NCBI GenBank assembly: GCA_029891345.1
Contig: CM057009.1
Coordinates: 209,678,709 to 209,742,708 of the forward strand
Origin: Dryococelus australis
Lineage: Eukaryota > Arthropoda > Insecta > Phasmatodea > Phasmatidae
Direction of reading: 5' to 3'
DNA length: 64,000 bases
Shown here in pieces: positions 12,186 to 56,110 of this stretch (its first letter is position 1; every line of letters starts with the position of its first letter). A model generated the notes under the pieces. That model did no database searches. It had not been told where the DNA came from and saw only the letters and a list, made by a program, of their open reading frames with translations. A program made the translations under genes and the position numbers.

Positions 12186-12394
12186 TGTGACCAGTGAGAC
12201 TGTGTCGCCTCACTCCTTTGCAAAATTGTTAATTACAACTGACCTTAATAAACTTTTAATTAACTGGTGGGACTACATCGCATCTGCCCTCAGAGAATTA
12301 TTAATTACAACAGATTGAAATTAACTTTTAATAATCTGGCAGGACTACGTCGCCTCACACGCTCGAATAATTATTATGTAAAACTAAATACACA
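12186..12394 (+). repeat. 3' LTR of element I, left 209 bp only
   Basis: Aligns with 1813-2022 of the 5' LTR, including the three U3 sub-repeats, then stops after TACACA (12389-12394). The next base begins the Polinton terminus. The missing remainder is at 53658-55512 on the - strand. Confidence 0.85.
12389..12394. repeat. 6-bp target duplication TACACA (Polinton), left copy
   Basis: TACACA ends the LTR fragment and abuts AGTAGATG. In the 5' LTR the same site reads TACACT (2017-2022). The partner, TGTGTA = reverse complement, is at 55507-55512. Polintons make 6-bp duplications and have AG...CT termini, so sequence and length both fit. Confidence 0.75.
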
Positions 12395-13010
12395 AGTAGA
12401 TGGCTATTGCAGATCCTAGTGCAACTCAATAATCAGACTAAAATTCAAGCAATTTCAAGCTAAATTCAAGCAAATTTCTAATTTCCTTTAAAATCTTTCA
12501 AACCGCAACTCAAAATAAATCAAATTTAAGGCCAAAATCAAAATAAATTTTTCATTTGTGTTCACTATTCGAGTGGGGTTCTTTAAAGGCTTATTTGCAA
12601 GCTAAATCATCGCATTTTTTATGAAATTCAAAGAATATCCCTAATTTTCTTCCGATAATCTTTTTTTACTAAATGATTTGGCTTGCAAATTTAGAGTAAA
12701 TTTTGCCTTTTTAGACGTAAATTTGGCCTCATTCACTCCCAAGAAGTACGCTGATCAAAGAGTGAATGAAGTATGTTTTTACAAAAAGTGCACCTGATTG
12801 AGAATGAAGATTTGGGTCAAATTATCTTGATTTTAGGCGTGAAATTTAAGAGACGAATCGTGTTTTCAGAAGAATTTGAATAAAGTAGCATGAAAGTGAG
12901 AAATTTGCTTGAATTTTAGTTTAATTATTGTGTTGTGCTGGGATCTGCAATAGACATCTACTGAATTTATAAAAATTTTTACATATAACACAACTTTTAA
13001 AAATGACAAA
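12395..13010 (+). repeat. Left terminal repeat of Polinton P-alpha (foldback)
   Basis: The outer 568 bp (12395-12962) is itself near-palindromic: it starts AGTAGATGGCTATTGCAGAT and ends with the inverse of AGTAGATGTCTATTGCAGAT. About 50 bp further inward (GAATTTATAAAAATTTTTAC...) is shared with the terminus at 55513, so the repeat extends beyond the foldback. Related termini: 16130-26676 and 55513-56110. Alone, the 568 bp could be taken for a MITE. Confidence 0.7.
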
Positions 13011-13690
13011 ACTCGTGTGGAGAAATACCCATCTCCTCACTGAACCATATTTACAAATTATTTTATGATGAGGAAAAGATTTTTTGTATTCTGTTCTTAT
13101 TGCAGAGCATGTTCACAATAGGACCAGAGAAAGTTTTTCGCTCAAATTTAAATGGTTTGGTTATAATCTAATATTGTGAATTTGCCAGACACACATATCC
13201 TCAATATTAAATTATCTGCTCAGACCAGGGGATCAAAATCCCAACCTTTGCATATTACACACCAAACACCCTGATGCCTGAGCCATGCGACAGGGCAAGG
13301 AACGAGCTTATTATAACCCTCCAAGAGCAGTGAGCTGCGAGCAGCAGTGTGTTCACAGTAGAGTGAGTAAAGATAGCGACACGGTTATGTAATAACACTT
13401 CCTGTCGCGACCAGAGCTCGCTGTCGTTAGGGACGAGAAAAGAACTGTGCAGATATGCATTTTCCTGTTGCAGACAGAGTTCATGGTGGTCGCCGAAGTA
13501 GATAAGAAAAATGCACGCTTCAAAAGATGCCAAGTTTTGTAGATAAAACAGTTAAAACTTATATGCAAGAATCAGAGTAACTGAAAACAGTTTTAAAGAT
13601 ATAATATTTTAAGTGTATAAAAAACAAACACTAAGCAAATATTTATATTATAAAATATTTTATTTGCTATCGATACTTACCACTGTCCAT
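13011..13690. other. AT-rich Polinton interior without recognised gene
   Basis: No Polinton gene recognised here. It holds a tRNA-like SINE head on the - strand (about 13206-13300) and short frames. The sequence between 13310 and 13560 is less AT-rich than the Polinton around it and may belong to that SINE or to another insertion. Confidence 0.4.
13206..13300 (-). mobile_element. Possible tRNA-derived SINE head
   Basis: On the - strand, an A-box-like TGGCTCAGGCATCAGGGTG is followed about 45 nt later by a B-box-like GGTTGGGATTTTGATCCC, the split promoter spacing of tRNA-derived SINEs. The B box deviates from the consensus. No tail or duplication was defined. Confidence 0.35.
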
Positions 13691-14243
13691 TTTCTACTGA
13701 AATGTAATGTTTAAAAACCATTATTTTTGCCCCAGTACTTTGCACAGATCTCTTTAAATTTCTCATATGACATGTCCCCACCAACAAAATCGCAATAGAT
13801 ATGTTTGAGGTTCGTAATGTCTTGTCTAAATATTCATAGAAAATTTGCATTGTCTTCTATGAATTGTTTGGGCACTCTGGAATATGTTTGTGCGCGTTAA
13901 AAAACATTAATATTTTTATGCCGACCTCTAGTAAAATACTCGGAGACGACATTTTGTTCATCTAAAATGTTATAATCAAAAATAATTATAGAATAATTTT
14001 CAGATTGGTCTAGTGGAATCATTTCCTCAGTATTATTTTTAAATAAGCCATTTTTTCATTATGCTTGCTGGACACATCAAAGTCATCTTGTAACTGAATA
14101 TATTTTGTTTGATTCAAACTTTTTAAACAAACAAACCATTTATTAAAATTTAGCCATTTTGGCTTATAAATATAATTGATTATTAAATTCATCTTGCTGC
14201 AATTTCTCGGGCCTACAATTATACCTCTAATATAATGAGGCAA
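13690..14243 (-). pseudogene. Polinton packaging ATPase (FtsK/HerA type), broken
   Basis: On the - strand the frame from 14243 downward carries IRGIIVGPRNCSKMN near 14190-14235, in the place of the Walker A loop; the loop is degenerate (Ser for the Gly before Lys, Met for Thr/Ser). Further on, SIIIFDYN (about 13965-13990) stands at the Walker B position, followed by the SEYFTRGRHKNINVF region typical of this ATPase. Stops and a frameshift occur downstream. This family drives genome packaging into capsids in Polintons and related viruses. There is no ATG at 14243 (TTG), so the true start is unknown. Confidence 0.7.
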
Positions 14244-14338
14244 AAGGTTGCTATTTTTATTTTTTATTTTAAGAGTTTTCTTTAGAAATTAAAACACCAA
14301 TCGACTTTCTTCATTTAATAACCTAATTTTTATATTAA

Positions 14339-15043
14339 ATGGATAATAAAGTATTCAAGTTAACAGATATTTATTCTATTCTTAAGAATAGACTTCACTA
14401 AGAAATATTTCATAATGGTAAATCTATAGCATTGATTAGTTTTCATGCGAAATTTTTAACATCAAATATAGGCAATAATAATATAACAACAATCGAAAAA
14501 ATGAATGCTCTCATTGATAAAAACTAAGTAACAACTATTCCCCAAGGTCAATAAGATATTAAATCTTTAAAATAAATTATAAATTTGATTGATCCATTTT
14601 CAACAAATAACATTGAATTAACAGCATATGATGAATAAAATAGAATATATATCAAATCTATTTTTAATATTAAACTTGATGAATAATTATTTGATATTCT
14701 AGGTTGAAAGAAATATGACTATTGAAAAAGACAATGTTGTCGTACACTAAATTGTCTAATTATAATCGAATTAAAACAATAAATGTCCAATGCAATTTAG
14801 TATATAGAATGTTTACAAAGTATGACGAATCTAATCACTTAGAAACATAAATAATTGCTAGTTTTCCACCAAAAAAATATGTTTGGCTTTAGAGATTACA
14901 TTAGCTATGTACCTGAGTATCCAATTTTTTATTAAATAAATAATGAGTGGTTTATTCACATTGTTTTAGAAATTAGAGACAAAAATGGTAAATTGATTGA
15001 TTTTGATGGTTCTGAAATTGACATTGTTTTGGAGAATAAATAA
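14339..15043 (+). pseudogene. Polinton penton-type minor capsid protein, with many in-frame stops
   Basis: The frame starts at ATG 14339 and, ignoring stops, stays aligned for about 125 codons with six TAA and two TGA codons and no evident frameshift. After a frame change near 14720 it continues to EIRDKNGKLIDFDGSEIDIV (14967-15026) and TAA at 15041-15043; that closing segment resembles the C-terminus of the small single-jelly-roll (penton) protein of insect Polintons. It is divergently placed with the ATPase. Identity rests on this C-terminal resemblance and gene position. Confidence 0.55.
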
Positions 15044-15103
15044 GTTGAAAATACTATACTATTTTATTATTAAATATATTGGGAGGAACTGCTGGTCCCC
15101 CTT

Positions 15104-15345
15104 TAAGAGGTACATTAAACATAAAACTCTTATTTCAGAAATTGCTGGGTTGAAAAATTCATACCAACTATTATTAATAAATTATAAAACTTTTCTTTGA
15201 AAACTTAAAGGGTGTCTGTCAGACGTCCTTAAGAGGTACATAACGTATAAACCTTTTCCTTCAGAAATAGGTGGGATGAAAAATTCATCCCACCTCTCAT
15301 TAGTAAAATGATAAATTTTATATGCAAATGGGTGTGTAACTATTT
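15104..15345. repeat. 126-bp tandem duplication
   Basis: TAAGAGGTACAT-type starts at 15104 and 15230; the two units share the CTTCAGAAAT and TGAAAAATTCAT words and the ATTA.TAAAA.TAAA end. Located between the penton and PolB pseudogenes of P-alpha. Confidence 0.65.
15269..15295. repeat. Perfect 12-bp hairpin
   Basis: AGGTGGGATGAA, a 3-nt loop, then TTCATCCCACCT, between convergent penton (+) and PolB (-) pseudogenes, where a transcription end signal would be useful. A 21-bp word overlapping its right arm (15278-15298) recurs in the BRO gene at 63196-63216. Confidence 0.6.
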
Positions 15346-15374
15346 TATTTTACAGTAGTATTATCTTGTTATCA

Positions 15375-15810
15375 CAATGACTTAATGCAAATTAACTTCG
15401 ATTATATATATTTTGTGTTTCTTGCTTCTAATTGAATGCATTGTTCTATACTGAACTTTCTTATCAAACACACATTTCTTATAGGCTTCAAATGTAATTC
15501 GATTATTCACAACAATTTTTTTCTTTTCTTTTCTTTATCCTTAACTCTATATGCCCACATCTTTGCTCTTAACCAACAAATTCTATAATTATTTAACCAT
15601 TACTACATTCGGCTTTCATTTTGCCTAAATCTTTTTTATTTATTTGTGTCATTTTATATATATTGTCATTTGGATAATCACTTGTATCAAATTTATCTAA
15701 CATCGACTTCATGTCTTCATTAAAGGTCTCTGGTTGGTTAATTTTTTTTTTCCTAACAACTCTGTAATATAATATTTGTGTGTATGCATCTTGGTTTCAA
15801 CTTCCATTTA
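15375..15810 (-). pseudogene. Polinton DNA polymerase B, C-terminal fragment
   Basis: On the - strand, successive frames carry KLRAKMWAYRVKDK-like and ITFEAYKKCVFDKK stretches, followed by SIRSKKHKIYIIE, the pattern found after the catalytic core near the C-terminus of protein-primed PolB in insect Polintons. Only the last roughly 140 codons remain; the exonuclease and catalytic motifs are absent, removed by the internal deletion. Several stops and two frame changes are present. Confidence 0.6.
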
Positions 15811-16130
15811 GTAAAGAAAAAATTTAATTATAAAATAAAAAGTAGTAGAAGCAATTTTGGAAAAATTTGGTAAAAACTTTGAAAATGTAAAAGTAGTTGA
15901 AACTGGGTGGTTGGAAGTAAAATGCAGTGCTTTTCTTACCTATATGAAGATATATACATTTTTTTAAAATTAATAAATGGAGGATGTAAACTATTCTACA
16001 GAAACAACAAATAGTTCCGATACATTAATTCCAATTTTTAGATGTATAGTTAAGTTGTTTAATCGAATAAAATATTATTTGGTTAATCGGGATGAGATTT
16101 TTTTGTGTCAATTTTATTTGAGCATTTTTT
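15811..16130 (+). other. Polinton right subterminal region, small ORF from 15977
   Basis: The block from 15977 (a frame starting MEDVNYSTETTN) matches, with divergence, the reverse complement of about 56460-56590, where the homologous frame starts MEDINSFTETK. Its presence next to both right termini shows that P-alpha and P-beta share the right end of one Polinton family. No domain recognised. Confidence 0.5.
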
Positions 16131-16606
16131 CAAAAGGGGTAAACTGCTTATATTTAAAATTTTGGATTAATTCAGTAGATGTATATTGCAGATACAAGCG
16201 CAACACACTAAGTTAGATAAAATTGAAGTAAATTAAATCCAAAATCTAGCAAATATCTCTTTTCCGCTAAAATCTTCCAAATTGTAGATCAAAATAGAGA
16301 AAATTTAAGGCCAAAATCAAACCTATTTCAACACGTCTCGGGTTCCTTCAGCAGGTTTTTTTAAAGCCTAATCTGCAAGTTAAATCATCCCATTTTGATA
16401 ACATTTCAGCACCCGTATTTTTTCTTCTTAATACATTTTTCTCTTCATAAATCAAAACGGAATCTCTACTCAAGAAGTTGAATAATTCCTTTGAATTCAC
16501 TAAACTACATGATCTAGAAAAAAATGGTTTACTGCCACAGATTTTGAAATCCGTGAATCTAATTTTGGTAAAAAGATTCATTGTAGTCTAGATGATAAGT
16601 TTAAAA
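16131..16606 (-). repeat. Right terminal repeat of P-alpha, inner part
   Basis: The inner flank (CTTATATTTAAAATTTTGG) mirrors the inner flank of the left terminus, then AGTAGATGTATATTGCAGAT at 16174 begins the foldback part. Similarity to 12395-12620 runs to about 16400; then sequence diverges before the gypsy II LTR at 16607. The outer part resumes after 26230. Confidence 0.65.
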
Positions 16607-17882
16607 TGTGCCGTTTTAGTAAGGCACTTGATAAATAAAAATTTTTTTAGGGCCAATTAATATTTTTGTTTGAATTCGATTTGCCCCAAATTAATGTAAA
16701 GTATTTTATTAGCTTCATTTTGGTTTTTGTTTACTATGGTATTGGTGACATATTGCATAATTAGGTCAGCGACCTCTTAAAAATAAGTTCACTACGAGAT
16801 TGTGCCAGATGAGTTTGACGTCTCTAAGCCAGCTTCACAATTTCCGTCCTGCTGGACATGTGGAGACGACTGTTACAAGACCCGTGGCGGCGCAGTTTGG
16901 TCACGCGCCGTACAAGAGTGTTTTGCCGCGCACCGCGAGAACTGTCACGAAGTAGTTTGAGATTACAATCCAGTCTAAGACTAGCTGTTTTTTTGCCCTG
17001 CGACGCTGTACAGACCGGCTGATGAATAACTTCTCAAAACAGGTTTTCATAGAAGAATATCATATATACCGCCTGAAAGCAAGTTTACTGCCTCTTAGCA
17101 CTATCTAGTGGTGCAGCAGGAACTAAGTATTCTAGTTCGTTTTGGTCTCCATCCGACAGGAACGCTAGTACTTGGTACGCAACGCCGCGGCTGACGAAGA
17201 TCGTACTCGTCATACTGCCGACAGAATTATACGAGGAATCCACGTTTATTAAGCACCGCATCTTCTACCCTCGTAACATCGGGATGTAGTGAGTCATGAT
17301 TTTTTCCTGGCCACAATGTAGCCAGTTGCTTTTGTATTGAGGATGTAGTATAGCGCCAATTGTGATATTAGATATTTATTTTGTGTGGTGATTGACTCAC
17401 CAACCGGCGGTGTCAGGATGTTCCTCACCTAGATCCATTAGAAACCTCCAGCTGGGTAAGTTTGGGTCCTTCTTTCTAATATTTGTTTCTCGCTTTGTCT
17501 AGGGCCATTTATTAATTATGCGCGCGTCTTTATTTTTGTTCGCAGAAGCTTTAAAATTTACCATCACGGTTACCCCTTCAATGAAAAATTTGCATCTCTC
17601 AAGTACTTCAACTTTCGTGATTTCGTTATGCTCAGATTTCAACCCCATCAGTAGACAGCCTTATATGTCATGTGAACGTACCGTGTCTTCCGTCAACGCG
17701 AAATGTGAGAACAGTGGGATGTTGTGTCTCCCGGAAGCCTAACTGTTACCGGTTGGACTTAAGGACTGGAAAATATAATATTGCCACGGTTCAGTACGCT
17801 TGGATTCAACTTTACTTTTGACTTGAATTATTAAATATATGTAGTAGTAAATATATCGGGTTTTGATAGTGGCATGAGTACA
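16607..17882 (+). repeat. 5' LTR of element II
   Basis: Starts TGTGCCGTTTTAGTAAGGCA and is matched along its length by 24486-26230. The end (GAGTACA) is set by the primer site four bases downstream and by the end of similarity with the right LTR. Confidence 0.85.
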
Positions 17883-17886
17883 TAAA

Positions 17887-17899
17887 TGGTAGCAGATGG
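17887..17899 (+). promoter_or_regulatory. Primer-binding site, initiator Met tRNA type
   Basis: TGGTAGCAGATGG; the first ten bases equal the complement of the 3' end of eukaryotic initiator tRNA-Met (TGGTAGCAGAGGATGG), followed by a 3-base gap. Its position four bases after the LTR is right for priming minus-strand DNA synthesis. Confidence 0.7.
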
Positions 17900-19230
17900 C
17901 ATAATTTAAAATAAATGCTTTTTTACGTGGCATAGTTAATGAGTTCGTGACAAAAAAACACAATTTGCACTTGTAGTTACGTATTTTGTAGTGTGGCTGT
18001 TTTGGTAAGGTCATATCTGTAATTTTCGGTCTCTTTGTCCCAGTGTCTGCGTCAACTAATCTCAAAGTAATTTAGTTATAATTCTTTTAGAGATATTGTA
18101 ATATGCTCTGCTGTATATGCTGTAAGTATGTCGTTGATCGACGGTAATTTGTTCAGCAACGACGCTTTCCGTGTATTTTGATTATCCCACGGGTAGAATA
18201 GATGTGAGGTATTTGTGCAGTAGTCATTGGTATTTTAAATTAATATTTGGCCTTCAAACATAAGTTTATTCGTTGTTTACGAGGTCTGAAAGTAATTTGT
18301 TTACCATTAGCCTACGACAATTGTTTATTTTGATATGATCAGATAAGCGCTATCTCCCGTTGGGGTGATGTTGTTTAGTTCGGCGCAGTAGTGCCAACTG
18401 CGCGAGGTTACAATTTCACTGCTCTGCACTTGTTTGTTTAAATTTCATCCTAATAGGATTTGTTTTGCACCCAAAGGTTTTGAAAACATTTGCGTGGTAT
18501 TTGTATTATCTTGGGACTTGTTAAAATTCGTTTTCCCGAATACAAAAATAAGTTTAAGGAGTTCTAAATAATTTCTAATAACTTTACCACACCACATGCA
18601 CTTGACATGGAAGGGAAAGCAGGTCCAGTGCATTATGTAAATACATAAGAGGATAGGGATGTACTTGCTTAGTTACCTGTTATAATATTGTTTCTTTGTT
18701 TAGAAGTTATTGTTTAAATAAATGTCGCAAATATGTAAGGCAGTGTCGTACCAGAGTACATGCTTAAGGATGAACTTGAATACAAGTTGAAGCCTCGTAA
18801 CTGAGACTATTCTGGTGCTGCACAGCAGTTGCGAAAGTAATTACCAGTGGCACTGAAGGAACAAATCCACTCGTCAGTGGAGTATTTAAGGGATATTGAT
18901 ATTATGGATGAGTTCGCATTTGCGTGGGAAAGGTATACGAGCTTAACAGCATAGCTTCGTGTTTACATAAAAGTATACGTTAAGTAGAGCTGCAGCGATG
19001 CCTGACGAGATTGACTCATATCATTAACCGACTAGGAATACTTCAGTCACTAGCCTAGGGCCAGCTGTATCTTGCCTAATTAACACAGATAAGCACATTT
19101 TTGGAGTCGGTCAACACCGATTATCAGAGTATCTCCCAGCAGCTGTAGTTTGTGATAGGAGCAGCATTGATAACTACAGACAGTAATCCGGGCTGTAGTA
19201 GTGCAAGGAAGGTGCTACTAGGCTAATTAA
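17900..19230 (+). other. Leader of element II
   Basis: About 1.3 kb between the primer site and the Gag frame, with no conserved coding motif. Leaders of this length usually hold packaging signals; none can be identified by eye. Confidence 0.5.
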
Positions 19231-20690
19231 TTCCAGGGCGGTCAGAATCAGGGACCTTAGTGTCCGCATTGCGGTTGCGGAACTAGAGACATCGGCTTCT
19301 CCATCTCTACTCACCTCCACCACACTTATTTCAACATCCATTCCCGCTTTTACCACATCATCCTCTCTCATTCCAGTCGACCCCATCACCACTTCATCTG
19401 TATGTTTCACATTGCAAATAAAACAAACTGTTGAAGAGAACCTAACATCTGTGGTGGCAGTCCCCACCAACACAAACACACTGGATGTCACTTCTGCCAT
19501 CCCACGCACACCGCCCTCCTCATTACAACCCTTAATCACTTTCCATTCCACTCAGCCCTCAACAAATGTTTTGGTTGATGTTCAGTAAAGCCAAAGTCAT
19601 GTTTCAGAAGTTTCACAAACTGGCGCAATACGAGCAACCACCCAACCACCCTAAATTCACAATATCAACCCCTTCCCTAGCACATGATTTATGTTTTCCA
19701 AAAACACACTCAACCACAGTTTGCAATAACATCCCAACCCATTGGCACATCCTTTGTAGCCGCCATACCCTCATACATCTGTTACCATACCCCAACATCC
19801 ATCCACCCCCTTTCCTTCCCAATCGCAACCCCATCGCCCATCGAATACACATAAGAAAACATTTGGCATCCAAACCTCAGCAGGCCTACAACACTCCACC
19901 TTCCACCCCCTACTTCTCCAATAGGCTCAACCTACCCTACCACTACCCCTCATATGGCATCCTCATTTTCAGCATATGGAAAACTTGCCCACCCTCTGGA
20001 AATAATTTTAGCTTTTTTCCGGGAAACTGATGGTTAAGATTAATACGAATCAAACAGAAGGGTAATATAACAGAGAACCAGTTGTTGGAAATAGAGTTTC
20101 CTTATACCCGCTCTCCCTTGAGCGACAGGACAATCGTAGCCATTACGAACGTCTACACTTTTGATCAGTATCACCAGGACTTCCTAGATTATTTTATCCC
20201 AGCTAGGATGCTAGTCAACATCCAGTTGAAATGTTTCTATCGTTTACAGTTACCTTATGAGCCTTTGGCTAATTATATAGCTGATATTAAATAGGCAGCT
20301 ATGGTGTTACACTTGCCAGTTTCAGAGACGGAAGTAGTCTCGACCATTGTGGACGGACTGAACCCTATTGAGCGATCATGTGCATAGCAGACCCCATACA
20401 ATTGCAGACCAGGACAGGTTCTGCATTAATTAATCTAATGTTGCTTTTGCTGAACAAGCAAGAGAGAGAGCATCATATCATTTGAGGAGACCTCCTACCT
20501 TATTACACAAAGGAAAAGCAGAAGATGCCACTTGTGCAAACATCAACATTAAACCTAAACAAAAGGTAGACATTAGCAAAGTACCAGATTAACTTTGTTT
20601 CTTTTGTCAGCAACCAGGTCATTTCAAGATAAGCTGTAGCAAATTTCGTGAATTTCTGTAAAATAAGAAACAGGAAAACGGAACCAAAAA
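19231..20690 (+). pseudogene. gag: Gag of gypsy element II
   Basis: An open + frame from about 19231 to TAA near 19588 is Ser/Thr/Pro-rich and lacks an ATG, and leads into 19566-20027 (Pro-rich). The frame 20082-20291 (DQYHQDFLDYFIPARML, YRLQLPYEPLANYIADIK) resembles the capsid region of gypsy Gag. A CX2CX4HX4C knuckle, CFFCQQPGHFKISC, is encoded at about 20596-20640. Gag forms the particle. Stops, for example TAG at 20292, break it. Confidence 0.75.
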
Positions 20691-20939
20691 ACACGTAGAG
20701 TGATGGTTTACACCCAAGCAAAATATGTCTAGACTACCTAAAAAACAAAAGATTACTAAGAAACAAAGGGCCCAAAATAATAATAAATTTAGTACAAAGG
20801 TACAACCAGTGTGTAGTGTCACAAATGTTGTTGAGGATAATTTAGGGAACAAATTGAGTTACTTTAACAATAGAAATGGTAAGGAATGTACGAAAAACAT
20901 GTATAAAAATTTGTCACAACATTTTCCCACTGATCAAAC

Positions 20940-21250
20940 CCTTTTTACCTTTTCTTGTCACACAATTGGGTGCATTTGAAATTGAAAGTCTTTTCGGTAC
21001 AGGATAAGTATGTAGCTTTATTTCTGCTTCATTCTTCAAAGAATTGGAGAATAAGGGTTATGTTAAAACTTCACAACCAGTAAGCATTAAATGTGTTACA
21101 GCTTCAGACCAACCTTAGCCAGTCAATATTGCTGCCATTATAAAAATTAAAAATGTCCTATTTTCATAGGTCTTTCTATTTCTAATGTGTGACTATTCGT
21201 ACTGATCTCCTTCTGGGAACAGATTTCATATAAAAAAAACTGTCATGTTA
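20940..21250 (+). pseudogene. Protease region of element II
   Basis: Downstream of the knuckle a frame reads LGAFEIESLFGTG, a stop, then FISASFFKELENKGY. This fits a retropepsin in which the catalytic Asp (D-T-G-A-S) position has become Gly-Thr-Gly plus stop. Identification depends on position between Gag and RT. Confidence 0.5.
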
Positions 21251-21429
21251 ATTTACATATAAGCCAGATGCATTACACCAAAATTTAATAGGCAAGTAAT
21301 TATTCAATTTGTTAATTGTAGCCAACCCAAGGAAAAAGGTCAAGTGTCGGAAATAATAAGTATCTTCTTGTGTTGAGTCAACTAAAAAGGATAAACCAAA
21401 AGTAAATAGAGAATCGTGTGCTGATTTCT

Positions 21430-22030
21430 CATCAGTAGTGACCCCTAAATTGGACTGTTCTAATTTAATTGAATATGATATCAAGTTACTGGACACCAAA
21501 CCTGTAAAGCGCCTTCCTTATGTTTTGGCACCTCCAAAAATGGAAATCATGAGATACAAAATTCAGGTTTTATTAGACAATGAAGTAATTGAACCATCCA
21601 AATCCTCTTTCAGTTCTCCAGCCTTTTTGGTCCCCAAAGAGGACGCCAATCGTTTAGTGGCGAAATATCATCTCCTAACAAACAAATAGACATATAAAGT
21701 GTTTCTTTGCCTAATCTAAATTCAGCTTTCCATTGGTTCAGTAAAGCTGAATATTTCAGTTGTTTTTGATCTAAATGCTGCCTTCTGGTTTAGCTACAGG
21801 AGCACAAGTACTCACATGTCTCATTGACCAGGTTTTGGGAGATGTCATGTTTAAATATGTTTTCCATTATTTAGATGATTTAGTTGTGTATTCTGAGAGT
21901 TATGATCAACATGTCACTCATTTGAAGGAAATCTTGGTAAGATCGAGGAAGGCAGGTCTCACCGCCAATCTAAAAAAGGTTAAAATTGCATTAAAGAAAT
22001 TTCTCTTCTCTGGCATTTAGTTTCAAAAAA
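21430..22030 (+). pseudogene. pol: Reverse transcriptase of element II
   Basis: NEVIEPSKSSFSSPAFLVPK (about 21580-21640) is the RT finger signature. HYLDDLVVYS (Tyr-Leu-Asp-Asp at 21868-21879) is the catalytic box, in the frame 21775-22017 that continues HLKEIL..SRKAGLTANLKK. The palm in between is damaged near 21690-21780. Confidence 0.85.
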
Positions 22031-22079
22031 AGGGCGTCTCCATAGATCCAGACAGATCTAAATCAATCCGAAATTTCCC

Positions 22080-25654: not shown

Positions 25655-25702
25655 TGCGTATATGACCTACAAGCTAAATAATACTTTGTTTCTAAGTTCC
25701 CG

Positions 25703-45540: not shown

Positions 45541-45544
45541 TATT

Positions 45545-45748
45545 AATGATTCGTCGAAATCGAGATCATCAGAGACAGATTAAATTGCTCGGAGAAAGTA
45601 GGAGCAGTAAGGAACCATCCCAGCATTTGCCTGGAGTGATTTCGGAAAACCACGGAAAATAGAAATCAAGATGGGAGGACCGGGATACGAATCCAGGTCC
45701 TCTCAAACGCGAGTCCAGTGGTTTACCACTACGCTAGCTCACTCGGTA
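45545..45748 (-). mobile_element. tRNA-derived SINE
   Basis: On the - strand: ACCGAGTGAGCTAGCGTAGTG gives a tRNA-like start with A box TAGCGTAGTGG, then B box GGATTCGTATCCC (plus-strand 45681-45693), followed by a tRNA-unrelated body containing TTTTCCGAAATCACTCCAGG and CTGGGATGGTTCCTT, a body seen in several insect SINE families. RNA polymerase III internal promoter. Tail near 45545 AT-rich. Confidence 0.8.
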
Positions 45749-48305
45749 CCATTCATTTTTTAAATTCAAGTTTTTTTGACATTAACATATATGTCAAAAT
45801 TAATTATAAAGTTTTTGGAACTGTCAAATAAAATGAACAAGGTGATAAAAAATTTCTTACGCGGAAATATTTTTGTATTTTTAACATTCTTTCTGCAATA
45901 CTAGAGAGAATTTCAACAATCAGGAATATGTACTCATTTAAAATATGCCAAAATTTCAATTTTATTACTTTGTTTCTAGAAATGAAACAAAATTTTTCTG
46001 AGTGATTGCTACAGGTCTTGAGTTATCTGGATATATCCTCCTTCAGAGTAAACTGTCTCAATTCTAGATGTAAAATAATTTTTATTCTTTAATAAAATCA
46101 GAACAACTTAATTTTTGACTTGCTAGTATGCAACAACTGTGGGATCAGTTTATTTTGCTTGTAAAAATATTAACATATAAATTCCGACGATTTCAACAAA
46201 AATATATATAAATTGGATTTACTATGTTGGAGACACGGCCGTTTGTTTTTGCGTGAATGCGTCTATGTTAACGCGTTCGGACGCCTTGATTTTTTTTTTT
46301 TGCGGCACCTCTTCAATCGATCATATGGGGTTTTATGGGTATCACTGGATTGCATATATACGATCTATGTATTTCGACTTGGATTTTTGACGAGTATAGG
46401 CAGATATTTGTTAAGTTTTCTTAAATTTTTACAATAAACTCATACAATTTCACCATTACTACGCCACACAAATTTTTTTTATACACGCAATAGATTGATC
46501 TTGACGGGAGCTGTCGATTGAAATCCAACCAAATGAGGGTCGTAGTTTCTCCTAGTCAAAAGTTATGAGATGAGGCGAAACGAACTCAAAATTAACCCCC
46601 CCCCCCCCCCAAAGTGTGCTTCGCAGTCCTCAATCAACATAAAATATTCTTTGATCCTCTGGCAATCGAGTGGTGTAATTGAATTTTGGTAGACGACAGA
46701 TTCGGAACTGCAATGCCAAACTGTATCCCCCGATGTTGTTATCATCGGATTTTCTGAATTGCTTCCCACTTATGGCCGCAAATTTAAAGACATATTCACG
46801 TCGAAAGGATAGGCGTAGATATATATCTAGCACACGTAAAGTTCTATGTCGAACAACACAGATTTGTCCTTCGCAAAACACGGTTTATAGAATACTACGT
46901 TATTCGCTACTATCTGGAGAGCCGTTTAGCATCCTCAATTTTCTAGATAATATGTATGAACCGGCTGACTTCCCCACTTGCTAGTTGTTCCCCGGCTCGC
47001 TCAGTCTGACGTTCTGTTCGAATCGCAAGTAACACTCCCTTATGTTCACTGCTTTTATGGTTCAGTATTTTTGATTTAGTATTACAGGCACGTGTCTGTC
47101 GGCCAAAATGTTGAACAGTGGGTTTTAAAACACCGCCCACCTTTTTTTATTAAATTCGAAATAGTGTTGTTGAAATACCACGTATCTTTAACAGAAAAAT
47201 CTGACTTAGTATGCAATTTATTCTCTACGAATTTAAATCACGTCGTCTTGGAATACAACTTTCATAACATCTTTTGTTCATGAACATACATTTCAGATCT
47301 ATCAAAAGAGCCAAAAAAATGGCATTTGCAGTCTATCTGTGAGACTCGTACAAGTGCTTGCATCGAACGTTCTTACGGACTTATAACAAACATAATTTCT
47401 CGGTGTTTAATGTCTTAAAGTTAACACGCCATATAACTGAACGTAAGTCAGTCCCTTGCACGCAGATGCGATGGAGCACAATAGCTCGTGCCAGTCTTGC
47501 TGTTTATATGAATCAAATGTGACTAAGACCTCCTGGTAGACGGAAATATAAAACAATAGATGAATGCAGCAATATAGCAAACTAAATGTTGGAACAAAAT
47601 GAATGTAAATGTTCTTTTACACAACAAGAGTACTATTGCTCTGCTGAAAAAAAAAGTACTTATGACATACTAAAAAAAACTTTCCTTACTGTTTTCTATG
47701 ACAGCGCCTGTGTAAATGAATACATTCACTACATTAATAAGAAGCTTCTTCGGCATTACTGAAGTGTTCTATTTGTGCTTGTGAGACCTAAAGGCGAATG
47801 TTCAAATAATGGGAGAGAGGAAGGATTGTTTATTGCGTGTTGAACACTTGCTTATATTCACAGCTTATTTATGTCACAGCAGATACTACCTACGAGACGC
47901 ACTTTGCTAAAAATGTTAATATTTTCATGGCAGAGCTAAATCTAAATTAGGTAAATGTTCAAATATTTATTTTGCCTAACAGCTGTTGGCCGCTGCTTCA
48001 CACGTTCCGAAATTGAAGTTTTCACTCATGAAGCACGTATTACCAACTTTAATATGAAATGTATTATTTTATTTTATGAATATGTTCTTGCTCATATGAC
48101 TTGAAATAGTTTCTCTTCATGTTATTCATGGGGATTTATTTTTTCAAGCATGTATATCTGACCAATAATAAATAACATATTTTGATTTGATAGTTTTTCA
48201 ATCTATTTTTTTAATGAAGTATGTAAACACAATTACATAAAGTAATTCACAATAACGTACTATACCAACAAGATTTTAGCTCACTTTTATTGAATCGTAA
48301 GCACG
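45749..48305. other. AT-rich region, no gene recognised
   Basis: Frames of up to 101 codons (46679-46981) overlap antisense frames and show no domain. Poly-C of 15 at 46596-46610. No terminal repeats found. Confidence 0.4.
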
Positions 48306-48325
48306 TATCGCCCCCCCCCCTTCTA

Positions 48326-48328
<3 letters not shown>

Positions 48329-48421
<93 letters not shown>
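48329..48421. repeat. (CT)n microsatellite, about 92 bp
   Basis: Uninterrupted CT dinucleotides after a C-run (48310-48320). The near absence of interruptions suggests a young, unstable tract or recent expansion. Confidence 0.97.
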
Positions 48422-48424
<3 letters not shown>

Positions 48425-49514
48425 CTAGTTCTCTGAGGAAGTTTTCGGATTAATCAATGCTATGCTTTCCGTTTTCTGATTTTATAGGTTTTGGTTTGCG
48501 TATTGACACTGTCGCTTAATTAACACTCGTTGCACATCAGTGAGTTATAAAACTAAGAATTTAAAAAAATAATTTTAACGAAATCTAATATAATATGTCA
48601 TTGTAGATAACATCGAAACACCCCGAAAGTTAGTGTAACATAAAATAATAATTACTACTCTAAAACTTTAAGAGTATATAATTCTTAAGATTGATTTAAC
48701 TAAAATTTCATGTATGCATAAAATTAAATAACTATGTAAAATAATTGCAAAGATACATAATATTTTTAATAGTCAACGCATTATTGTGCTTATTTTAAAT
48801 GCAGTGGTCTCGTTGCTTAGCAAAATCTTAATTTATATTTCTTTTTTAAGTTATAAAATCCAAAAGAAACTATAAATTCCGACAGACCTCATAATTTACA
48901 TATACAGAATTGAGTGATCCGGAAATTTAATTTGCGAGAATTGTAAATTATAACACCAACAACTGATTCACGTGGCTCATACGGCTAAGGGATTACGGTA
49001 CGTAAGAAAGTGTGCTAATTGCGTATTAATATCAGAAACGTTCGACCTTCTTCCTCCCTCCTAGATGTAGTTTATATTTACTTAATAGGTATTACGTCAA
49101 TTATTAAACATTCACAGGATCTATTTACGTAGAAAAAGATATATAATTGTTCTATTCGATACTCGAATAAGATATGCTTTTATTATATTTGTACGGATAA
49201 TAATTAAGACAAAGTAATATTTAAAAGGCATTTATGTAGAAAATCTTACATTTTCATCGGAAAATTCTTGCGATTTCCTCAATACTTTTACGTTTTCAAG
49301 TTGTAACGTATTAAACAAAGAAGAAACAATTAATGAACCAAGTATAGGAAAAAAAGTTAACTGAATGTATCCGTTATTCTCTAGGTAGGGTATCAGTTCC
49401 GTCATCTTTTAGCTGAAATAACATTTGTTTTAAACTGCTACTTTCCCGCCATTTGCGTTGTAGAGAATAAACTATTTTGTAAACAAGAGACTGGCACGTT
49501 GGTTCCCTTTCTTA
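48422..49514. other. AT-rich spacer
   Basis: No supported frame, no repeat or RNA gene seen. Confidence 0.45.
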
Positions 49515-49517
49515 TTA

Positions 49518-50914
49518 GGGCCGGCTTCACCACGCGAGATAACGATAGTTTATATAGATTAAGTGTCATTATCTCGATTGTACGTATTTTATGTTTCATT
49601 ACGCACCTTATTTCGATTTTCTCTGTATATCTACACAAAATATTTGAACAGCAGATTTTGGTGTATAAAGTCTCATTATCGGGACAAATCTGTTAAAATA
49701 ACTCGCAAACAAATTTGGAAAGTTAAAGGGAATTATTATTTGTAGATTATTAGCATAACATTAGACAGTAATAAACACATGATCTGGAAATGGTAGCAAA
49801 ATTAATGCAAGAGTATTCAGGAAAATATCGATGTATAGAAAGTAGTCTGGGAAACAGTAATTGCAGTGTTATCTGTTTTCTATATAAAATACTCTCTTTA
49901 AATTTTAATATACCTTTAATATAGCCATATTATCACAGTATAAGTTTATTCGCTGCATATGATTCGATAAACAATAATGCACTCAACTTGCGGTTATTAA
50001 TTCAGGCGTGGATGTAAAATACGTAAAAGTTAAAACATTTGAAAATAACCGAATTTATGAGCAACGCAACAAACTATAATTCAGCCGAAATAAAAAACAG
50101 TAACTTATGAAACATATATTTAAGCCTTTATTTTCATAGGTTTAATTTTCATTGTATGGAGTTTATTCCAGCATGTTTGCCTGAAGAAGCATATGTATTT
50201 AAATAAGTCTACTATTCACCCTTTATAAGAGTATATTGTAAGGAAAATAACATTTAAAACATCGATAATATTACATATTGTGTTGATAGAACATTTCGAA
50301 AAATTTAATTTTCCGCGTATTTTATATTATTCTGATATTATCTGTTATACACTCTTCACGGTAAAGTGATCACTTTTGAAAGCTCTCTAATTTGAATACT
50401 AGTCAATAAATATATTTTATTTTAGCCTTAGAAGTAAACTTTCGAGTGCGGTGGAATATATACATTGTGTTTACTACTTACATGACAATATTTATTTAAA
50501 AAGCTGGTTAAATGATAAGAAATGGCTGAAAGGAAAAAAGTAACTGAGCCCTCAAAAGTGTTGACTTTACCGTGAACAGCCTATACTATCTCTAACAAAC
50601 AGTTTTTTTTCTTTCCAGTACGTTGTTGTTTTGTTGCTTTTTTTTTCGTGAAAATACCATCTGGACTTCTAAAAAATATTCACTTTATTAAACGTAAAAT
50701 ACCAAACATTTTCTGTAAACTGAGCCAGTAAAGCAGACGATCGCGATTTAGACAGAATATCGAGATAATTATTTACGAGACATTCTTTATGGCGGATAAC
50801 ATGTAGCGAAACGCGCTCAAAATTATCGAGATAAAAATCGAAGTTAAACCTCTTATCTGGATAAAATTATCTCGATGCTCCGAAAAAGATATTCTTCGTT
50901 GATGAAACCGGCCC
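49518..50914. mobile_element. Harbinger-like non-autonomous DNA transposon, 1397 bp
   Basis: Left end GGGCCGGCTTCACCA and right end, inverted, GGGCCGGTTTCATCA; both are flanked by TTA (49515-49517 and 50915-50917). A 3-bp TTA/TAA target and GGGCC termini fit PIF/Harbinger. CGAGATAA/TTATCTCG words recur near both ends (49535, 49571, 50759, 50818, 50869). No transposase frame inside, hence non-autonomous. Confidence 0.7.
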
Positions 50915-50917
50915 TTA

Positions 50918-51630
50918 GCCCTTCGTTTCTTTGTCACCACAACCTCCCGTTTCTGGTCGAAGGCCACAACACCTCCAGGTAAGTCTCATTTTTCGTATTT
51001 AAGAAACGATTCACAGTCAACAGATAGCGACCCACATTTTGTAAATAATTTTTATAAATTTATTAAACTACCAAGTTACAAAACGGGGTACAATAACTTG
51101 ATAATTTTAAAACAACCCATATATAGTGTGTGAAATAAGATGACCGAGTTTAAAATGCACATATTCTGATGTTAAAAATGCTTTAGTCAAACAGTGGAAA
51201 AATTTAAAGAAATTATGTATTCACAATTACAGTGAAACTGTGATTTTATTATTTTGTATGTAAAAAGGCACACACTGTTGTGAAATTACAATTGTGATGC
51301 CTGCGTAAATTTACTAACTGTGGAGAACAGCACGAATATTGCAGTTTATAATTTGCTACATGTTAATTGTAATTTCACTTCTTCTGTGAAAAATTTGTTG
51401 TACAATGTACATGCTATTACACTAATGTGTAGAATAAATTTATTGGACTTAGAGTAAAGAAAAAGTCTTCGACCTACAATGGTGGAAAATCTAAAATTAA
51501 GATCTGGATGCATTGGTCCAGCATGGATGAAGGTTAGGCCTGTACTGAATAATTATACAGGCTGTACACTCTATATGATAATGATCAGAGGGTCGTGAAC
51601 CTATGGATAGAGGCTAAAGTGAGTCTTGAA
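50918..51630. other. AT-rich spacer
   Basis: Nothing recognised. Confidence 0.45.
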
Positions 51631-51639
51631 CAACCACGT

Positions 51640-52340
51640 CAGTAACTTCTGTAGCCTCCTTTAGCGACGATGCAGTCCTACAGTCGTCCTAAGAGACGAT
51701 CATACATGTATCGGATGTTATCTTGGGGAATATTGTTCCATGCTAATTCCGCCTGATGTTGCAAATGGAGGAGGTTTGTTGTCGGTATTGCAGACCACAC
51801 CAAACGCCGTCCCATCATGTCTTACACATGTTCAATGGGAAACAGGTTGGGTGATCGTGTTGGCCAAAGGAGTGGACGAACACCTTCGAGTGCGCGTTGG
51901 GTAACATGGGGCTTGTGTGCATGGGCATTGACCTGTTGGAAGAGGACATCTCCTTGGCGTTGTAAGAATGGTAACAAAATGGGCTGGACGATGTTCTGAA
52001 TGTAGTGTTCACCGTTCAGTGTTCCCTCGACAAACATCAGAGGCATACAGTCATTGTAGGCTATTGCTCCCCAGACCATAATGCCAGGAGTTGTCCCTGT
52101 ATGCCACTGCCATATACACACTGGTTGTTGTCGCTCTCCTGGTCGATGCAGCACTCGCAAACGACTGTCACTGGCGCCAAGGCTGAATCTGCTTTCATCA
52201 CTAAACACCTCTCCACCTCAATCATCCTTCCAGTTTCGTCGTTAGCGACACCATCCGAGTGAGTGAAGAGATTTGGGCGGCTCTTAACAGCGAGGTCTTG
52301 AGAGCCGATGAGAGTGATTGAGGTGCGTATGGAGCAAATA
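51640..52340 (-). pseudogene. Tc1-type transposase, C-terminal two thirds
   Basis: The - strand frame 51822-52208 reads FSDESRFSLGASDSRLRVLH (first catalytic Asp in SDES), GIMVWGAIAYNDCMPL, VLFQQVNAHAHKPHV (second Asp position now Asn) and RSPNLFPIEHV (last acid). The frame then continues past TAG at 51822 as DMMGRRL towards 51640. A different frame upstream (52061-52340) covers more of the N-terminal part. No start and no terminal repeats were found. It differs in sequence from the Tc1 element at 42661. Confidence 0.8.
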
Positions 52341-52858
52341 TTGATGACAGAGGTATATGTTGAAATAAAGTGCAAAAATGTCAGTGGATTAATATAGTAA
52401 TAAACTCATCAGGTTGGACGCAACAGAAATGGAAGAATGCTGTTGAAGTGGTAGAAATCCGATACCTGAGTTTTGGAGTGAAGATGGCGAAGATCGAGCA
52501 AAGCCTGACAGGCTTCAGTGCAGTACATGGCGAAGAGAGGTCCTACATAATTTCTACATGGCTGGCCCTGCTACAATACACCCCCAGTTATTTTTCCAGT
52601 AAACGCAGATGATAATCAAAATGGAATATTTCTATGGTTAAATGTCAAGGACATATGGTATAATACAACTTGATGGAAGTGATTTAATCCAGAAGGTCGA
52701 TCGAGAGAGTGGGGTAAAAGCAACTAAGGTGGAACGACAGAGCATGGAGGGGAATGGAGGTGACTAAGGAAAATGAAATCCAATATGGGAGGGTTAACAA
52801 AAGTGGGTAATTGGGAAACAAGACGGCGGCCAAATCCAAAGCATGATCCCTGACCCAG
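52341..52858. other. Spacer, nothing recognised
   Basis: Short open frames on both strands; no motif. Confidence 0.4.
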
Positions 52859-52910
52859 ATAAAAGGGGCTATTTTGCTGGAAAAATAAGCTTTTTGGGGA
52901 GAAAAGAAGC

Positions 52911-52974
52911 GAGCCCCCCCCCCCCCAAATCCTTCCAATGGCTCGAAAATATACTTGGGGGGGGGGGGAGGCTC
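52911..52974. repeat. C13 / G12 inverted tract (GC hairpin)
   Basis: GAG + 13 C (52914-52926) faces 12 G (52957-52968) + AGGCTC across a 30-nt loop, giving an almost pure G:C stem on either strand. The G run could also form a quadruplex. It sits in a dispersed repeat related to 44181-44665. Confidence 0.8.
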
Positions 52975-53653
52975 ACTATTGCAATTTGGAGACTAGGTGT
53001 TTTTTTCAAGGAAAAATCGGCTAATTTTTGAGGAAAAAAGGGGGAATTCCATGATGGCGAACGGATCCTGAATACTGCTGCCAGATGCCAATGCGCCAAA
53101 GTACCCATTACTACACTACTGCCATCATTGAACACTTAGTGATGAGAAGAATCCATAATATATTTTGGTTAGTGAACCTGTGCAGATCTAACATGGCACA
53201 TTGATAATTCAACAACGCCACTTTCGAGAGTTTAGAACAATTAGGTCCATTCTATATGTGTATTATTTAAAAAGCTATCGAGATAATTTTCATTCGAATT
53301 GAGTCGTATTATTCACGTAGTAAACAATGTCACAAGAAAGGAAAAAAATTGCCTGACAGCAATGTGTGTTTAAAATGGGATGCGAACAGTGTGCATATCG
53401 TCTCGCTGGTATTATTCATGCTATCAGTGAAACTAGATAACTTTCGCTTTATATATATCAGCGTCAAAAAAGCGTGATTCTATACCGATGAGGGCACCTG
53501 GTAACGTACATAATATATATATTTTTATGAAGTAAATATTTCCAAAGGCCATATTCTGCTTTAAAATTTTGTCACTGTATTTTAACACAGAGGGATTTAA
53601 CTCAACACATTTTTATATTCCTGACCTACATTAAATAGTTAATTATGTACATG
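52975..53653. other. Spacer up to the LTR half
   Basis: Nothing recognised. By the inversion model this is the original right-hand flank of gypsy element I, now reversed. Confidence 0.4.
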
Positions 53654-53657
53654 ACTT

Positions 53658-55512
53658 TCAGACCGTGCTACGCCCTAAGACAAGGGCGTTGCAGGGCAGG
53701 ATTTGCATACAGATAAGCAAAACCAACAGAACACCAAAAATGGCAAAAAGCCATGCAAACAATTATTTGTGCAATGTAAGGGTGAATAAGCATGATGGTA
53801 AACGACTTGAAACAGAAACAAAGAAGTATGACAAGTCTCTTTTATTAAGTTAATATTCATTCGTTTCAGTAGTTATCAATCTTACATGTTGAAAATATTT
53901 CATTGGTTAGCAATCTTACAAGTAGAAATGCTAAAAACTTCCTCTCCCTCATTTTCAATTGAATTAACATGTATATAAAACTAAGTTACCATAAATATTG
54001 AGTTAAATGTGATTAAATGGCAAGTACGTAATTATGCTTACACCCAGTTAATACTTGCTTATCCCCACTAAAATGCAGGTAATATTTACGCAAAAACCTT
54101 GGCCATATAGCGAATACACAGGACATCACAATACATACTGGGTAAATTACCCTAAACATACTTCATCGCAAGATGGCGTAACAAACTCTGTTTAACCAAC
54201 ATGTACTCTTTACTTTAGAAAATTGAGTTAAGTCATATACAGGAAAAACAAATAAGACAACTCATATTGCAGTGTAACCTTTATGTCTGTGCGATATTTT
54301 GTCCTTCATCTGCTCGCGATCCCTCGTGGATAGGAGCAAATGCTTAGCAATGCCAGCCTTAACTCCCGCGAGCAAAGGTTACTTTCAACATGTCCTAAAC
54401 TTCGTAAATATTTTGAAATAGTTTACTAAAAATAAACATAACTGAAACCCAAGTAACGCCTAACATTGCCTAGACTTGGTTTCAAAATACTAACACCATA
54501 ATCATTATTTTGGTTTCTAGTGATTACAACAACTGAAAGTTCTCGTTAATTATTGGTCACATACTTTTATGGGTTTACAAAATCAGTTACAAAAATTACC
54601 ATTTTCCCATTTCGGATAAGAGACCAACATTTCGCAAGGTTTAAAAATATATACGATTTCCAGCCACCATGGCTCTCGCCTAACGTTGGAATGACGTAAA
54701 TGTCCTAATCGCTTGATGAGCCTACATGTGTGCTAAATCAAGAATGCTACTTATTTGGCAGAAGTTTGCCCCCTCGAGGTCGCTGACTGACCCCGAACGA
54801 AGCAAGTGCAGGCAATTTATACACCGATCTGCCACCTAGCGTCACCAATAACACATGAGATCCAAATTTGTTTTCAGAATTCCAAGAAATTAGTGGGGTT
54901 TTCAAAACCCCTTATGGGGGTCGTGATATTCATGCCCAAGGACGGTTGATGTTACCTAATAAGGCGAATTAACACAGCGGACACCATTTTCCCTAAAATG
55001 GGTCTCCATAATTTAAAATTCAAACACCAATTACATGAAAATACGACACCATTCTTCCGGCCTCTTGACCAAGTTGTCGGAACTGATACAACTAAAAATA
55101 CGCTTTGGATTTGCGCGCGCACGGTCAGTTCTCAGCGCCTGCAACCGACGGTGTTGCTTTCGGGCGGCGAACAGGCGAAACCCCTGTCCGCCACACAGTG
55201 GGCTTCCATGGCTGGCCGCTGCTAGAAGTGATTATTAGCACGTATAGTTAACACAAATTCTTCGTTACCTCAGGTCTTCCAAGGTCTTTTTAAGATAACG
55301 TGATCCTGGCGAACGTATTAGAAGTTAGTATTTTAATAATTTTAAGTCTTATTATAGCATTTTAACACCAAAACAAACATGTTTAACATGTTCATGGTGT
55401 CCGGCACTGCACCACCGAACAAGATGTCAGGTGAGCAGCCACAGTAACCATTCGAATGGGTGACGGGCGACATGTTCCGGCCCACTGTTTTAACAGGTTA
55501 TTATTATGTGTA
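53658..55512 (-). repeat. Right-hand part of LTR I, inverted
   Basis: The reverse complement follows 2017-2274 and 5346-6863 (without the piggyBac) from TACACATAATAATAACCTG to CTGA at the far end, including the TATA/initiator block. It lacks exactly the part present at 12186-12388. ACTT (53654-53657) beyond its far end mirrors the AAGT before 1813. It shows the unoccupied piggyBac target. Confidence 0.85.
55507..55512. repeat. 6-bp target duplication TGTGTA, right copy (inverted)
   Basis: Exact reverse complement of TACACA at 12389-12394, and like it followed directly by AGTAGAT. Confidence 0.75.
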
Positions 55513-56110
55513 AGTAGATTTATATTGCATAACCTAGTGCAACTAAATAATCAGACTAAAATTCAAGCTAATTTCTCACTTTCTAGCAATTTTTTTTTCA
55601 TATTCTTCTGAAAACGTGATTCATCCCTTCAATTTCACCTCCAAAATCAAGCTAATTTGACCCAAATCTGCATACTCAATCAGGCGCACTTTTTTTAAAA
55701 ACATGCTCCATTCACTCTTTGATCAGTGTCCTTCTCGGGAGGGAATGAGGGTAAAGTTTGGTCAAAAAAGCCCAAACTTACTCTAAATCTGCAAGCCAAA
55801 TCATTCAATAAAAAAAATCACAGGAATGTTAGTGATCTTCTTGGAATTTCTTGAAAAATGTGATAATTTAGCTCGCAAATAAGGCTTTAAAGAACCCCAC
55901 ACAAAGAGTGAATACAAGTTAAAAATTGATTTTTATTTTGGCCTTAAATTTGATTGATTTTGAGTTGCGCTGTGAAAGATTTTCGAGGAAATTAGAAATT
56001 AGCTTAAATTTGGCTTGAAATTGTTTGAATTAATTATTGATGTACTAGGATGTGCGCTTAACATATATTGAATTTATAAAAAATGTTTCCATATAAACAC
56101 AATGTTCGTT
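55513..56110 (-). repeat. Terminal repeat of P-beta
   Basis: AGTAGATTTATATTGCATAA start; similar along its length to 12395-13010 (ACCTAGTGCAACTAAATAAT, CAAACTTTACTC.., and the inner GAATTTATAAAAAATGTTTC). Like the left terminus of P-alpha it is a foldback about 560 bp long. Confidence 0.75.

What the first reader, a model, noticed from the sequence alone, without database searches (positions are those of the whole stretch)
12186..55520. One LTR cut by a Polinton, with its two halves 43 kb apart in opposite orientation
Seen: the 3' LTR of gypsy I stops at 12394 after TACACA; the missing LTR part starts at 55512 on the - strand and ends with TGTGTA, its exact reverse complement. Both junctions abut the same AGTAGAT terminus. 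Known: Polintons make 6-bp target duplications and have AG...CT ends. Inference: a Polinton inserted in the LTR, then an inversion with one breakpoint inside Polinton sequence and the other beyond the LTR moved the right half. Re-joining restores a contiguous LTR, one LTR length similar to the 5' copy (about 2.06 versus 1.98 kb) and a 4-bp AAGT duplication.
Basis: partly seen in the sequence, partly recalled or inferred. Interest (0 to 1): 0.88.

Follow-up and report, generated by a model that had tools for sequence, protein, structure and literature searches.

The report
Retrotransposon repeat split by a Polinton
A virus-like transposon appears to have jumped into the end of an older retrotransposon, and a later flip of neighbouring DNA carried half of that end about 43,000 bases away; this is a tidy fossil of ordinary genome rearrangement, not a new kind of element.

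Summary
The left part of gypsy I's 3' LTR (12186-12394) and the right part on the minus strand (rc 53658-55512) align without a gap at the junction to the 5' LTR: 1712 of 1963 compared positions (87.2%). They share exactly the 6-bp TACACA. Both abut AGTAGAT, the outer end of a 557-568-bp terminal unit; the two units are 83.8% alike. AAGT flanks the rejoined retrotransposon. Best reading: one Polinton-like element P entered the LTR; a later inversion moved P's other end, the LTR half and its flank.

12394 and 55512 are then old insertion edges, not breakpoints. A second, more diverged Polinton-like end (Q, outer end 26676, flank TTCCTT) closes the left piece. So I place the left breakpoint inside 12963-16173, probably 15720-15950, and the right one beyond about 56600, perhaps beyond the window. 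Both are inference.

Polinton identity rests mainly on termini and duplication; integrase matches are weak, and ATPase, PolB and protease are recalled motifs. Misassembly is untested: the whole-genome tool did not complete.

The parts
1809..1812 (+). AAGT, left target duplication of gypsy I
1813..2274 (+). 5' LTR of gypsy I, first part, holding the uninterrupted site GTACACTTAATAAT
2275..5349 (.). later insertion in the 5' LTR with ends CACTAAAACCGC...GCGGTTCTAGTG; not identified
5350..6863 (+). 5' LTR of gypsy I, second part
9242..10602 (+). gypsy I pol remnants: RNase H pieces (PF17919 E 4.1e-10, PF17917 E 2.6e-6) and an integrase zinc-binding piece (PF17921 E 7.9e-5, below its curated cut-off)
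12186..12394 (+). 3' LTR of gypsy I, left half, ending in TACACA (12389-12394)
12395..12962 (+). Polinton-like terminal unit Pl: 63-bp inverted arms (87.3%) around a ~440-bp core
12963..15800 (.). inferred left piece of Polinton P; minus-strand reading pieces that resemble Polinton ATPase (14288-13714) and PolB C-terminus (15796-15596) by recalled motifs only
   Evidence: no convincing family hit
15720..15950 (.). inferred left inversion breakpoint, between the PolB-like piece and the second copy's end
   Evidence: inference
15977..16105 (+). small reading frame beside Q's end; counterpart at 56574-56479 (-), 65.6% over 32 aa, tblastn E 1.8e-9
16174..16606 (+). terminal unit of the second Polinton-like copy Q, inner part (16174-16564 was used in the alignments)
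16607..26235 (+). second LTR element ('gypsy II'): repeats from 16607 to about 17887-17913 and from 24486 to about 26234-26262, inserted in Q's terminal unit; right ends approximate
26263..26676 (+). terminal unit of Q, outer part, ending CTCTACT and followed by TTCCTT
26677..53653 (-). inferred inverted stretch: former downstream flank of gypsy I, with a DDE_3 transposase remnant at 51825-52217
   Evidence: inference; DDE_3 E 2.3e-9
53654..53657 (-). AAGT on the minus strand, right target duplication of gypsy I
53658..55512 (-). 3' LTR of gypsy I, right half, with the second TACACA (rc of 55507-55512)
55513..56069 (+). terminal unit Pr, other end of P; 83.8% to Pl in flipped orientation; its inner arm is worn
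56070..64000 (+). inferred rest of P (and possibly part of Q), running off the window: protease-like pieces 59531-60107 (recalled motifs), fibre-like frame 60782-61297, integrase-like 61947-62207 with chromodomain-like 62282-62551 (61734-61966 recalled only), DUF3627 and BRO-N pieces 62576-63977 (-)

Best explanation
An LTR retrotransposon (gypsy I) inserted with an AAGT duplication. A Polinton-like element P later integrated into its 3' LTR, making the 6-bp TACACA duplication. Later still, an inversion with one breakpoint inside P (probably 15720-15950) and the other at or in a second, more diverged Polinton-like copy Q turned around the rest of P, the right half of the LTR and its downstream flank. 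12394 and 55512 are therefore insertion edges, not breakpoints. Shown: LTR halves, 6-bp duplication, AAGT, matching terminal units, Q's end with a foreign flank. Inferred: that this was one inversion, where its breakpoints lie, and that the element is a Polinton.
For: Rejoining without a gap, with exactly 6 shared bases and a single-copy site in the 5' LTR. AAGT on both sides of the rejoined gypsy I. Pl and Pr are 83.8% alike (465/555), at 80-88% in each of 9 windows, whereas Q is 71.3% and 69.6% to them in the three-way alignment (70.6% and 61.6% pairwise), so Pl and Pr are each other's closest match of the three units. Ends AGTAGA against the vertebrate Maverick motif (AGT)2//(ACT)2 and 6-bp duplications (PMC8097293, passages and section 7). 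Integrase C-terminal piece: IS481 transposase E 0.005, rve_3 E 0.084, chromodomain piece E 0.043, all under curated cut-offs, and one database relative P0001 at 9.4e-7. The flanks of Pr and of Q share a small reading frame, while the sequence inward of it differs in the two places and the PolB-like piece in the left part is cut short there (PolB reading recalled). The ATPase- and PolB-like pieces had no match below E 0.08 right of 55513, as expected of complementary parts, though only 8.5 kb of that side is in view.
Against: No uninverted arrangement and no reads were seen. K80 between the two ends of P (0.183) exceeds that between the LTRs (0.14), although P must be younger than the LTR pair; this needs ends that already differed at insertion, or uneven rates. 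The left LTR half is more diverged than the right (76.1% versus 88.5%). P's ends are not a plain terminal inverted repeat: the cores are direct. No curated cut-off was reached by any of the pieces I read as integrase, ATPase, PolB or protease. If the small frame beside Pr and Q lies within a longer terminal repeat, the argument for a breakpoint at 15720-15950 weakens and 13015-13700 becomes possible.
Confidence: 0.66

Rival explanations
1. Ectopic (non-allelic homologous) recombination between P and an inverted copy Q made the inversion, leaving two chimeric elements with exchanged target duplications, as shown for Galileo in Drosophila.
For: The left composite has mismatched flanks TACACA and TTCCTT and ends of two different similarity classes; Pr and Q carry the same end type. 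Precedent PMC2775673 (passages).
Against: At the inferred left junction the PolB-like piece meets Q's end region, and I saw no homology between the two exchange points. The left composite is only about 4.6 kb without gypsy II. The far end of the right composite is outside the window, so the decisive flank was not seen.
Confidence: 0.17
2. Misassembly or scaffolding error at repeated Polinton sequence.
For: Polinton-like copies at both places; no reads or second assembly could be consulted (genome search did not complete).
Against: No N anywhere in the window; the repeated units at the two places differ by about 16%, which makes confusion by an assembler less likely.
Confidence: 0.13
3. Two independent insertions of the same family at the same base of two different LTR copies, with no inversion.
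For: The two LTR halves differ in divergence from the 5' LTR (76.1% versus 88.5%).
Against: Needs the same cut to the base; the AAGT duplication ties the right half to gypsy I; the self-comparison lists no match of gypsy I's body next to 53657.
Confidence: 0.04

Closest known systems
Polinton/Maverick elements (PMC8097293; section 7 and passages seen)
   Same: 6-bp target duplication, AGT-rich outer end, long terminal repeats, integrase-like and other virus-like gene pieces.
   Different: Here the two ~440-bp terminal cores are in direct, not inverted, orientation; the element is broken and decayed and runs off the window; PolB, ATPase and protease are only recalled-motif readings.
Galileo-generated inversions in Drosophila buzzatii (PMC2775673; passages seen)
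   Same: Copies of one transposon family at an inversion, and target duplications that no longer pair within one copy.
   Different: A different transposon class; only one of the two exchanged flanks is visible here and no homologous exchange point was found.
TIR-TIR recombination inversions of bacterial insertion sequences (PMC3004938; abstract seen)
   Same: Recombination between short inverted repeats flips what lies between them, which would explain the flipped terminal core.
   Different: There the inversion is of the insertion sequence; here only one terminal core would have flipped.

Membership tests
Polinton/Maverick | 6-bp target site duplication | tested here: met
   TACACA at 12389-12394 and on the minus strand at 55507-55512, single copy in the 5' LTR; depends on the rejoined arrangement
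Polinton/Maverick | AG...CT outer ends, (AGT)2-like | tested here: met
   AGTAGA at both P ends, 5 of 6 bases of AGTAGT (motif); Q ends CTCTACT
Polinton/Maverick | Long terminal inverted repeats | tested here: inconclusive
   63-bp outer arm and a short inner flank are inverted, but the ~440-bp core is direct: 83.0% direct versus 48.3% inverted, 20 shuffles 38.6-49.4%
Polinton/Maverick | Retroviral-like integrase | tested here: inconclusive
   IS481 E 0.005, rve_3 E 0.084, chromodomain E 0.043, all under curated cut-offs; two further pieces, 61734-61877 and 61823-61966, gave no integrase hit; one fragmentary relative P0001
Polinton/Maverick | Protein-primed PolB, packaging ATPase, protease, capsid proteins | tested here: inconclusive
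   PolB-, ATPase- and protease-like pieces recognised by recalled motifs; no convincing family hit; ATPase piece found no relative; capsid genes not identified
Polinton/Maverick | Size 12.7-24.6 kb with genes in two modules (vertebrate Mavericks) | not testable with these tools
   Right piece leaves the window at 64000; genome tool unanswered
Ginger2 | Termini TGTNR with 6-bp RTATAY targets (PMC2836005, passages) | tested here: not met
   Termini AGTAGA, target TACACA
LTR retrotransposon (Ty3/gypsy-like) | Two LTRs, short target duplication, RNase H then integrase | tested here: met
   87.2% LTR identity, AAGT on both sides, PF17919 upstream of PF17921
LTR retrotransposon (Ty3/gypsy-like) | LTR ends TG...CA | tested here: not met
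   3' copy starts TGTGAC but 5' copy TTTGAC; ends read TATGA and TCTGA where the alignment stops; decayed copies
Transposon-mediated inversion by ectopic recombination | Exchanged target duplications at both composites | tested here: inconclusive
   Left composite mismatched (TACACA/TTCCTT); right composite's far end outside the window

The most novel reading that the evidence does not exclude
This Polinton family carries invertible terminal cores: a ~440-bp segment bounded by 63-bp inverted arms can flip at one end, giving an element whose terminal cores are direct repeats and whose copies are then prone to local and long-range inversion.
Probability: 0.12. Interest if true: 0.5.

Novelty: new member of a known kind. 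Interest (0 to 1): 0.33.

Why it matters
Nested insertions and two target duplications here order an insertion and a later rearrangement from sequence alone. A Polinton (rather than Galileo, LINEs or SINEs, the cases named in the passages of PMC2775673) at an inversion would be a further example of large transposons reshaping chromosomes. In the listings (20 of 489 papers; 6 of 6) I saw no title or abstract opening that reports one; those listings are partial and full texts were not read for it. The flipped terminal core, if found in other copies, would be a real oddity in Polinton ends.

Tried and rejected
Considered and rejected: that the 568-bp unit is a stand-alone short transposon. Its inner flank (GAATTTATAAAA...) recurs, in the inward direction, beside all three units Pl, Pr and Q (by eye in the alignment), so it is the end of a larger element. 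Considered and rejected: that the unit is a full palindrome; outside the 63-bp arms Pl's core matches its own reverse complement at 47.6% (192/403), inside the range of 20 shuffles made for the Pl-Pr core pair, 38.6-49.4%. Considered and rejected: Ginger2, on its termini.

Led nowhere: viral-contig scans with the integrase piece, the PolB-like piece, the chromodomain piece, a two-sequence integrase alignment, the end motif and an integrase DNA pattern (no relative in 6 of 6). PHROGs (9 pieces) and NCBIfam (10 pieces) gave only weak hits apart from two PHROGs for 60782-61297, a tail fibre family at 2.6e-5 and a head decoration family at 9.6e-4. Pfam on the 30 frames, out of 41 stop-to-stop frames of 110 aa or more: families at E below 1e-3 in 3 of 30 (two in gypsy I, one DDE_3). 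Pfam on 20 pieces: 3 of 20 at E below 1e-3 (BRO-N and two DUF3627). Solved structures: nothing useful. Host organism not identified. No structure was predicted and no RNA search was run.
Full report
What was checked. Self-comparison of the window and pairwise alignments confirm that 12186-12394 and the reverse complement of 53658-55512 are the two halves of one LTR type, that of gypsy I. The alignment of the rejoined 3' LTR with the 5' LTR (whose own 3.07-kb insertion, 2275-5349, was left out) covers 1963 compared positions, 1712 identical (87.2%, K80 0.14), and has no gap in the 81 columns printed around the junction. The halves overlap in exactly TACACA; the 5' LTR has one copy of the site, as TACACT. 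AAGT stands before 1813 and, on the minus strand, directly after the right half. The left half is more diverged than the right (159/209 versus 1553/1754). The matching part of the 5' LTR is a 73-bp tandem array (1832-2013), which may evolve faster; this is not proven.

The elements at the junctions. At 12395-12962 (Pl) and 55513-56069 (Pr) lies a terminal unit. In Pl it has 63-bp inverted arms (87.3%); in Pr the inner arm is worn. Pl and the reverse complement of Pr agree at 465 of 555 positions (83.8%), at 80-88% in each of 9 windows. A third unit, Q (16174-16564 plus 26263-26676 as aligned), agrees with them at 71.3% and 69.6% in the three-way alignment, 70.6% and 61.6% pairwise. Q is interrupted by a second LTR element whose repeats start at 16607 and 24486 and whose stretch 21824-22450 matches gypsy I's RNase H region at 55.6%. 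The inner flank GAATTTATAAAA... recurs inward of all three units (by eye), so the units are ends of a larger element, and Q's outer end is 26676, followed by TTCCTT.

Is it a Polinton? For: 6-bp duplication and AGTAGA end (vertebrate Mavericks commonly have (AGT)2//(ACT)2 ends and 6-bp duplications: PMC8097293, passages, section 7), an integrase-like piece at 61947-62207 (IS481 transposase E 0.005, rve_3 E 0.084), a chromodomain-like piece at 62282-62551 (E 0.043), a fibre-like frame 60782-61297 (PHROG tail fibre family 2.6e-5), and BRO-N (5.9e-14) and DUF3627 (1.2e-11, 2.3e-4) pieces. The integrase and chromodomain scores are below the curated cut-offs, and two further pieces I read as integrase gave no integrase hit. 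I also read ATPase-like (14288-13714, minus), PolB C-terminus-like (15796-15596, minus) and protease-like (59531-60107, plus) pieces by motifs recalled from memory; no library supported these three (as far as each was given; for the ATPase piece). I call the element Polinton-like with fair, not full, confidence.

Where the inversion breaks. Pr and Q share an outward-reading small frame next to the terminal unit (65.6% over 32 residues, E 1.8e-9), so they look like the same end type, unless that frame lies within a longer terminal repeat. Inward of it the two places differ: beside Pr other frames follow, beside Q the PolB-like piece, which lacks its upstream part (recalled reading). The ATPase- and PolB-like pieces have no match below E 0.08 right of 55513, where 8.5 kb is in view. 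The simplest reading is that the left piece, 12395 to about 15.7 kb, and the right piece, from 55513 on, are complementary parts of one element P, and that the left piece was joined to an end fragment of Q between about 15720 and 15950. The other breakpoint lies right of about 56600, probably outside the window. The inverted stretch would then start near 15.7-15.95 kb and include Q's end, the former flank of gypsy I (26677-53653), AAGT, the right LTR half and most of P. All this is inference. If the ATPase- and PolB-like pieces belong to Q instead, the left breakpoint would lie near 13.0-13.7 kb.

Alternative mechanism. In Drosophila buzzatii, recombination between inverted Galileo copies left chimeric copies with exchanged duplications (PMC2775673, passages). 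The mismatched TACACA/TTCCTT flanks fit that pattern, but I saw no homology at the exchange point and could not see the far end of the right composite.

The flipped core. If Pl and Pr were the two arms of an ordinary terminal inverted repeat, Pl's core should match Pr's core read inward. It does not: 201/416 (48.3%), within 20 shuffles (38.6-49.4%), against 356/429 (83.0%) in the other direction. In the rejoined element the outer arms and inner flank are inverted but the ~440-bp cores are direct. A flip between the 63-bp arms at one end would explain this; inversions by recombination between terminal inverted repeats are reported for bacterial insertion sequences (PMC3004938, abstract). With one left end and two right ends in view, a family trait is equally possible.

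Against the reading. The ends of P differ more (K80 0.183) than the LTRs they entered (0.14), which is not expected if P's ends were identical at insertion. The left LTR half is the more diverged one. No uninverted relative, haplotype or reads could be consulted; the genome search failed in 10 of 10 tries. The window holds no N.

Print search. Searches (20 of 489 papers listed; 20 of 89; 12 of 19; 6 of 6; 12 of 24) searched the held papers; I saw listings and abstract openings only, except for passages of PMC2775673, PMC8097293 and PMC2836005, section 7 of PMC8097293 and the abstract of PMC3004938. None of the rows listed shows, by title or abstract opening, a Polinton-caused inversion or a flipped Polinton core.

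Verdict. A well-preserved fossil of ordinary events: real as sequence, interesting as a small case history, interest 0.33.

Noticed in passing
12395-12962 and 55513-56069: Terminal cores of the Polinton-like element are direct, not inverted, in the rejoined arrangement.
   Followed up: partly
16607-26235: Second LTR element with repeats about 83.5% alike, nested in the end of another Polinton-like copy.
   Followed up: partly
2275-5349: 3.07-kb insertion in gypsy I's 5' LTR with ends CACTAAAACCGC...GCGGTTCTAGTG, GTCAA before and TTAAC after it; superfamily not determined.
   Followed up: no
62576-63977 (-): BRO-N piece and two DUF3627 pieces beside the integrase-like gene.
   Followed up: partly
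51825-52217 (-): DDE_3 transposase remnant, E 2.3e-9.
   Followed up: no
42132-42659 and about 43740-44130: Tandem array of about 116-bp units with related copies about 1.2-1.8 kb further on.
   Followed up: no
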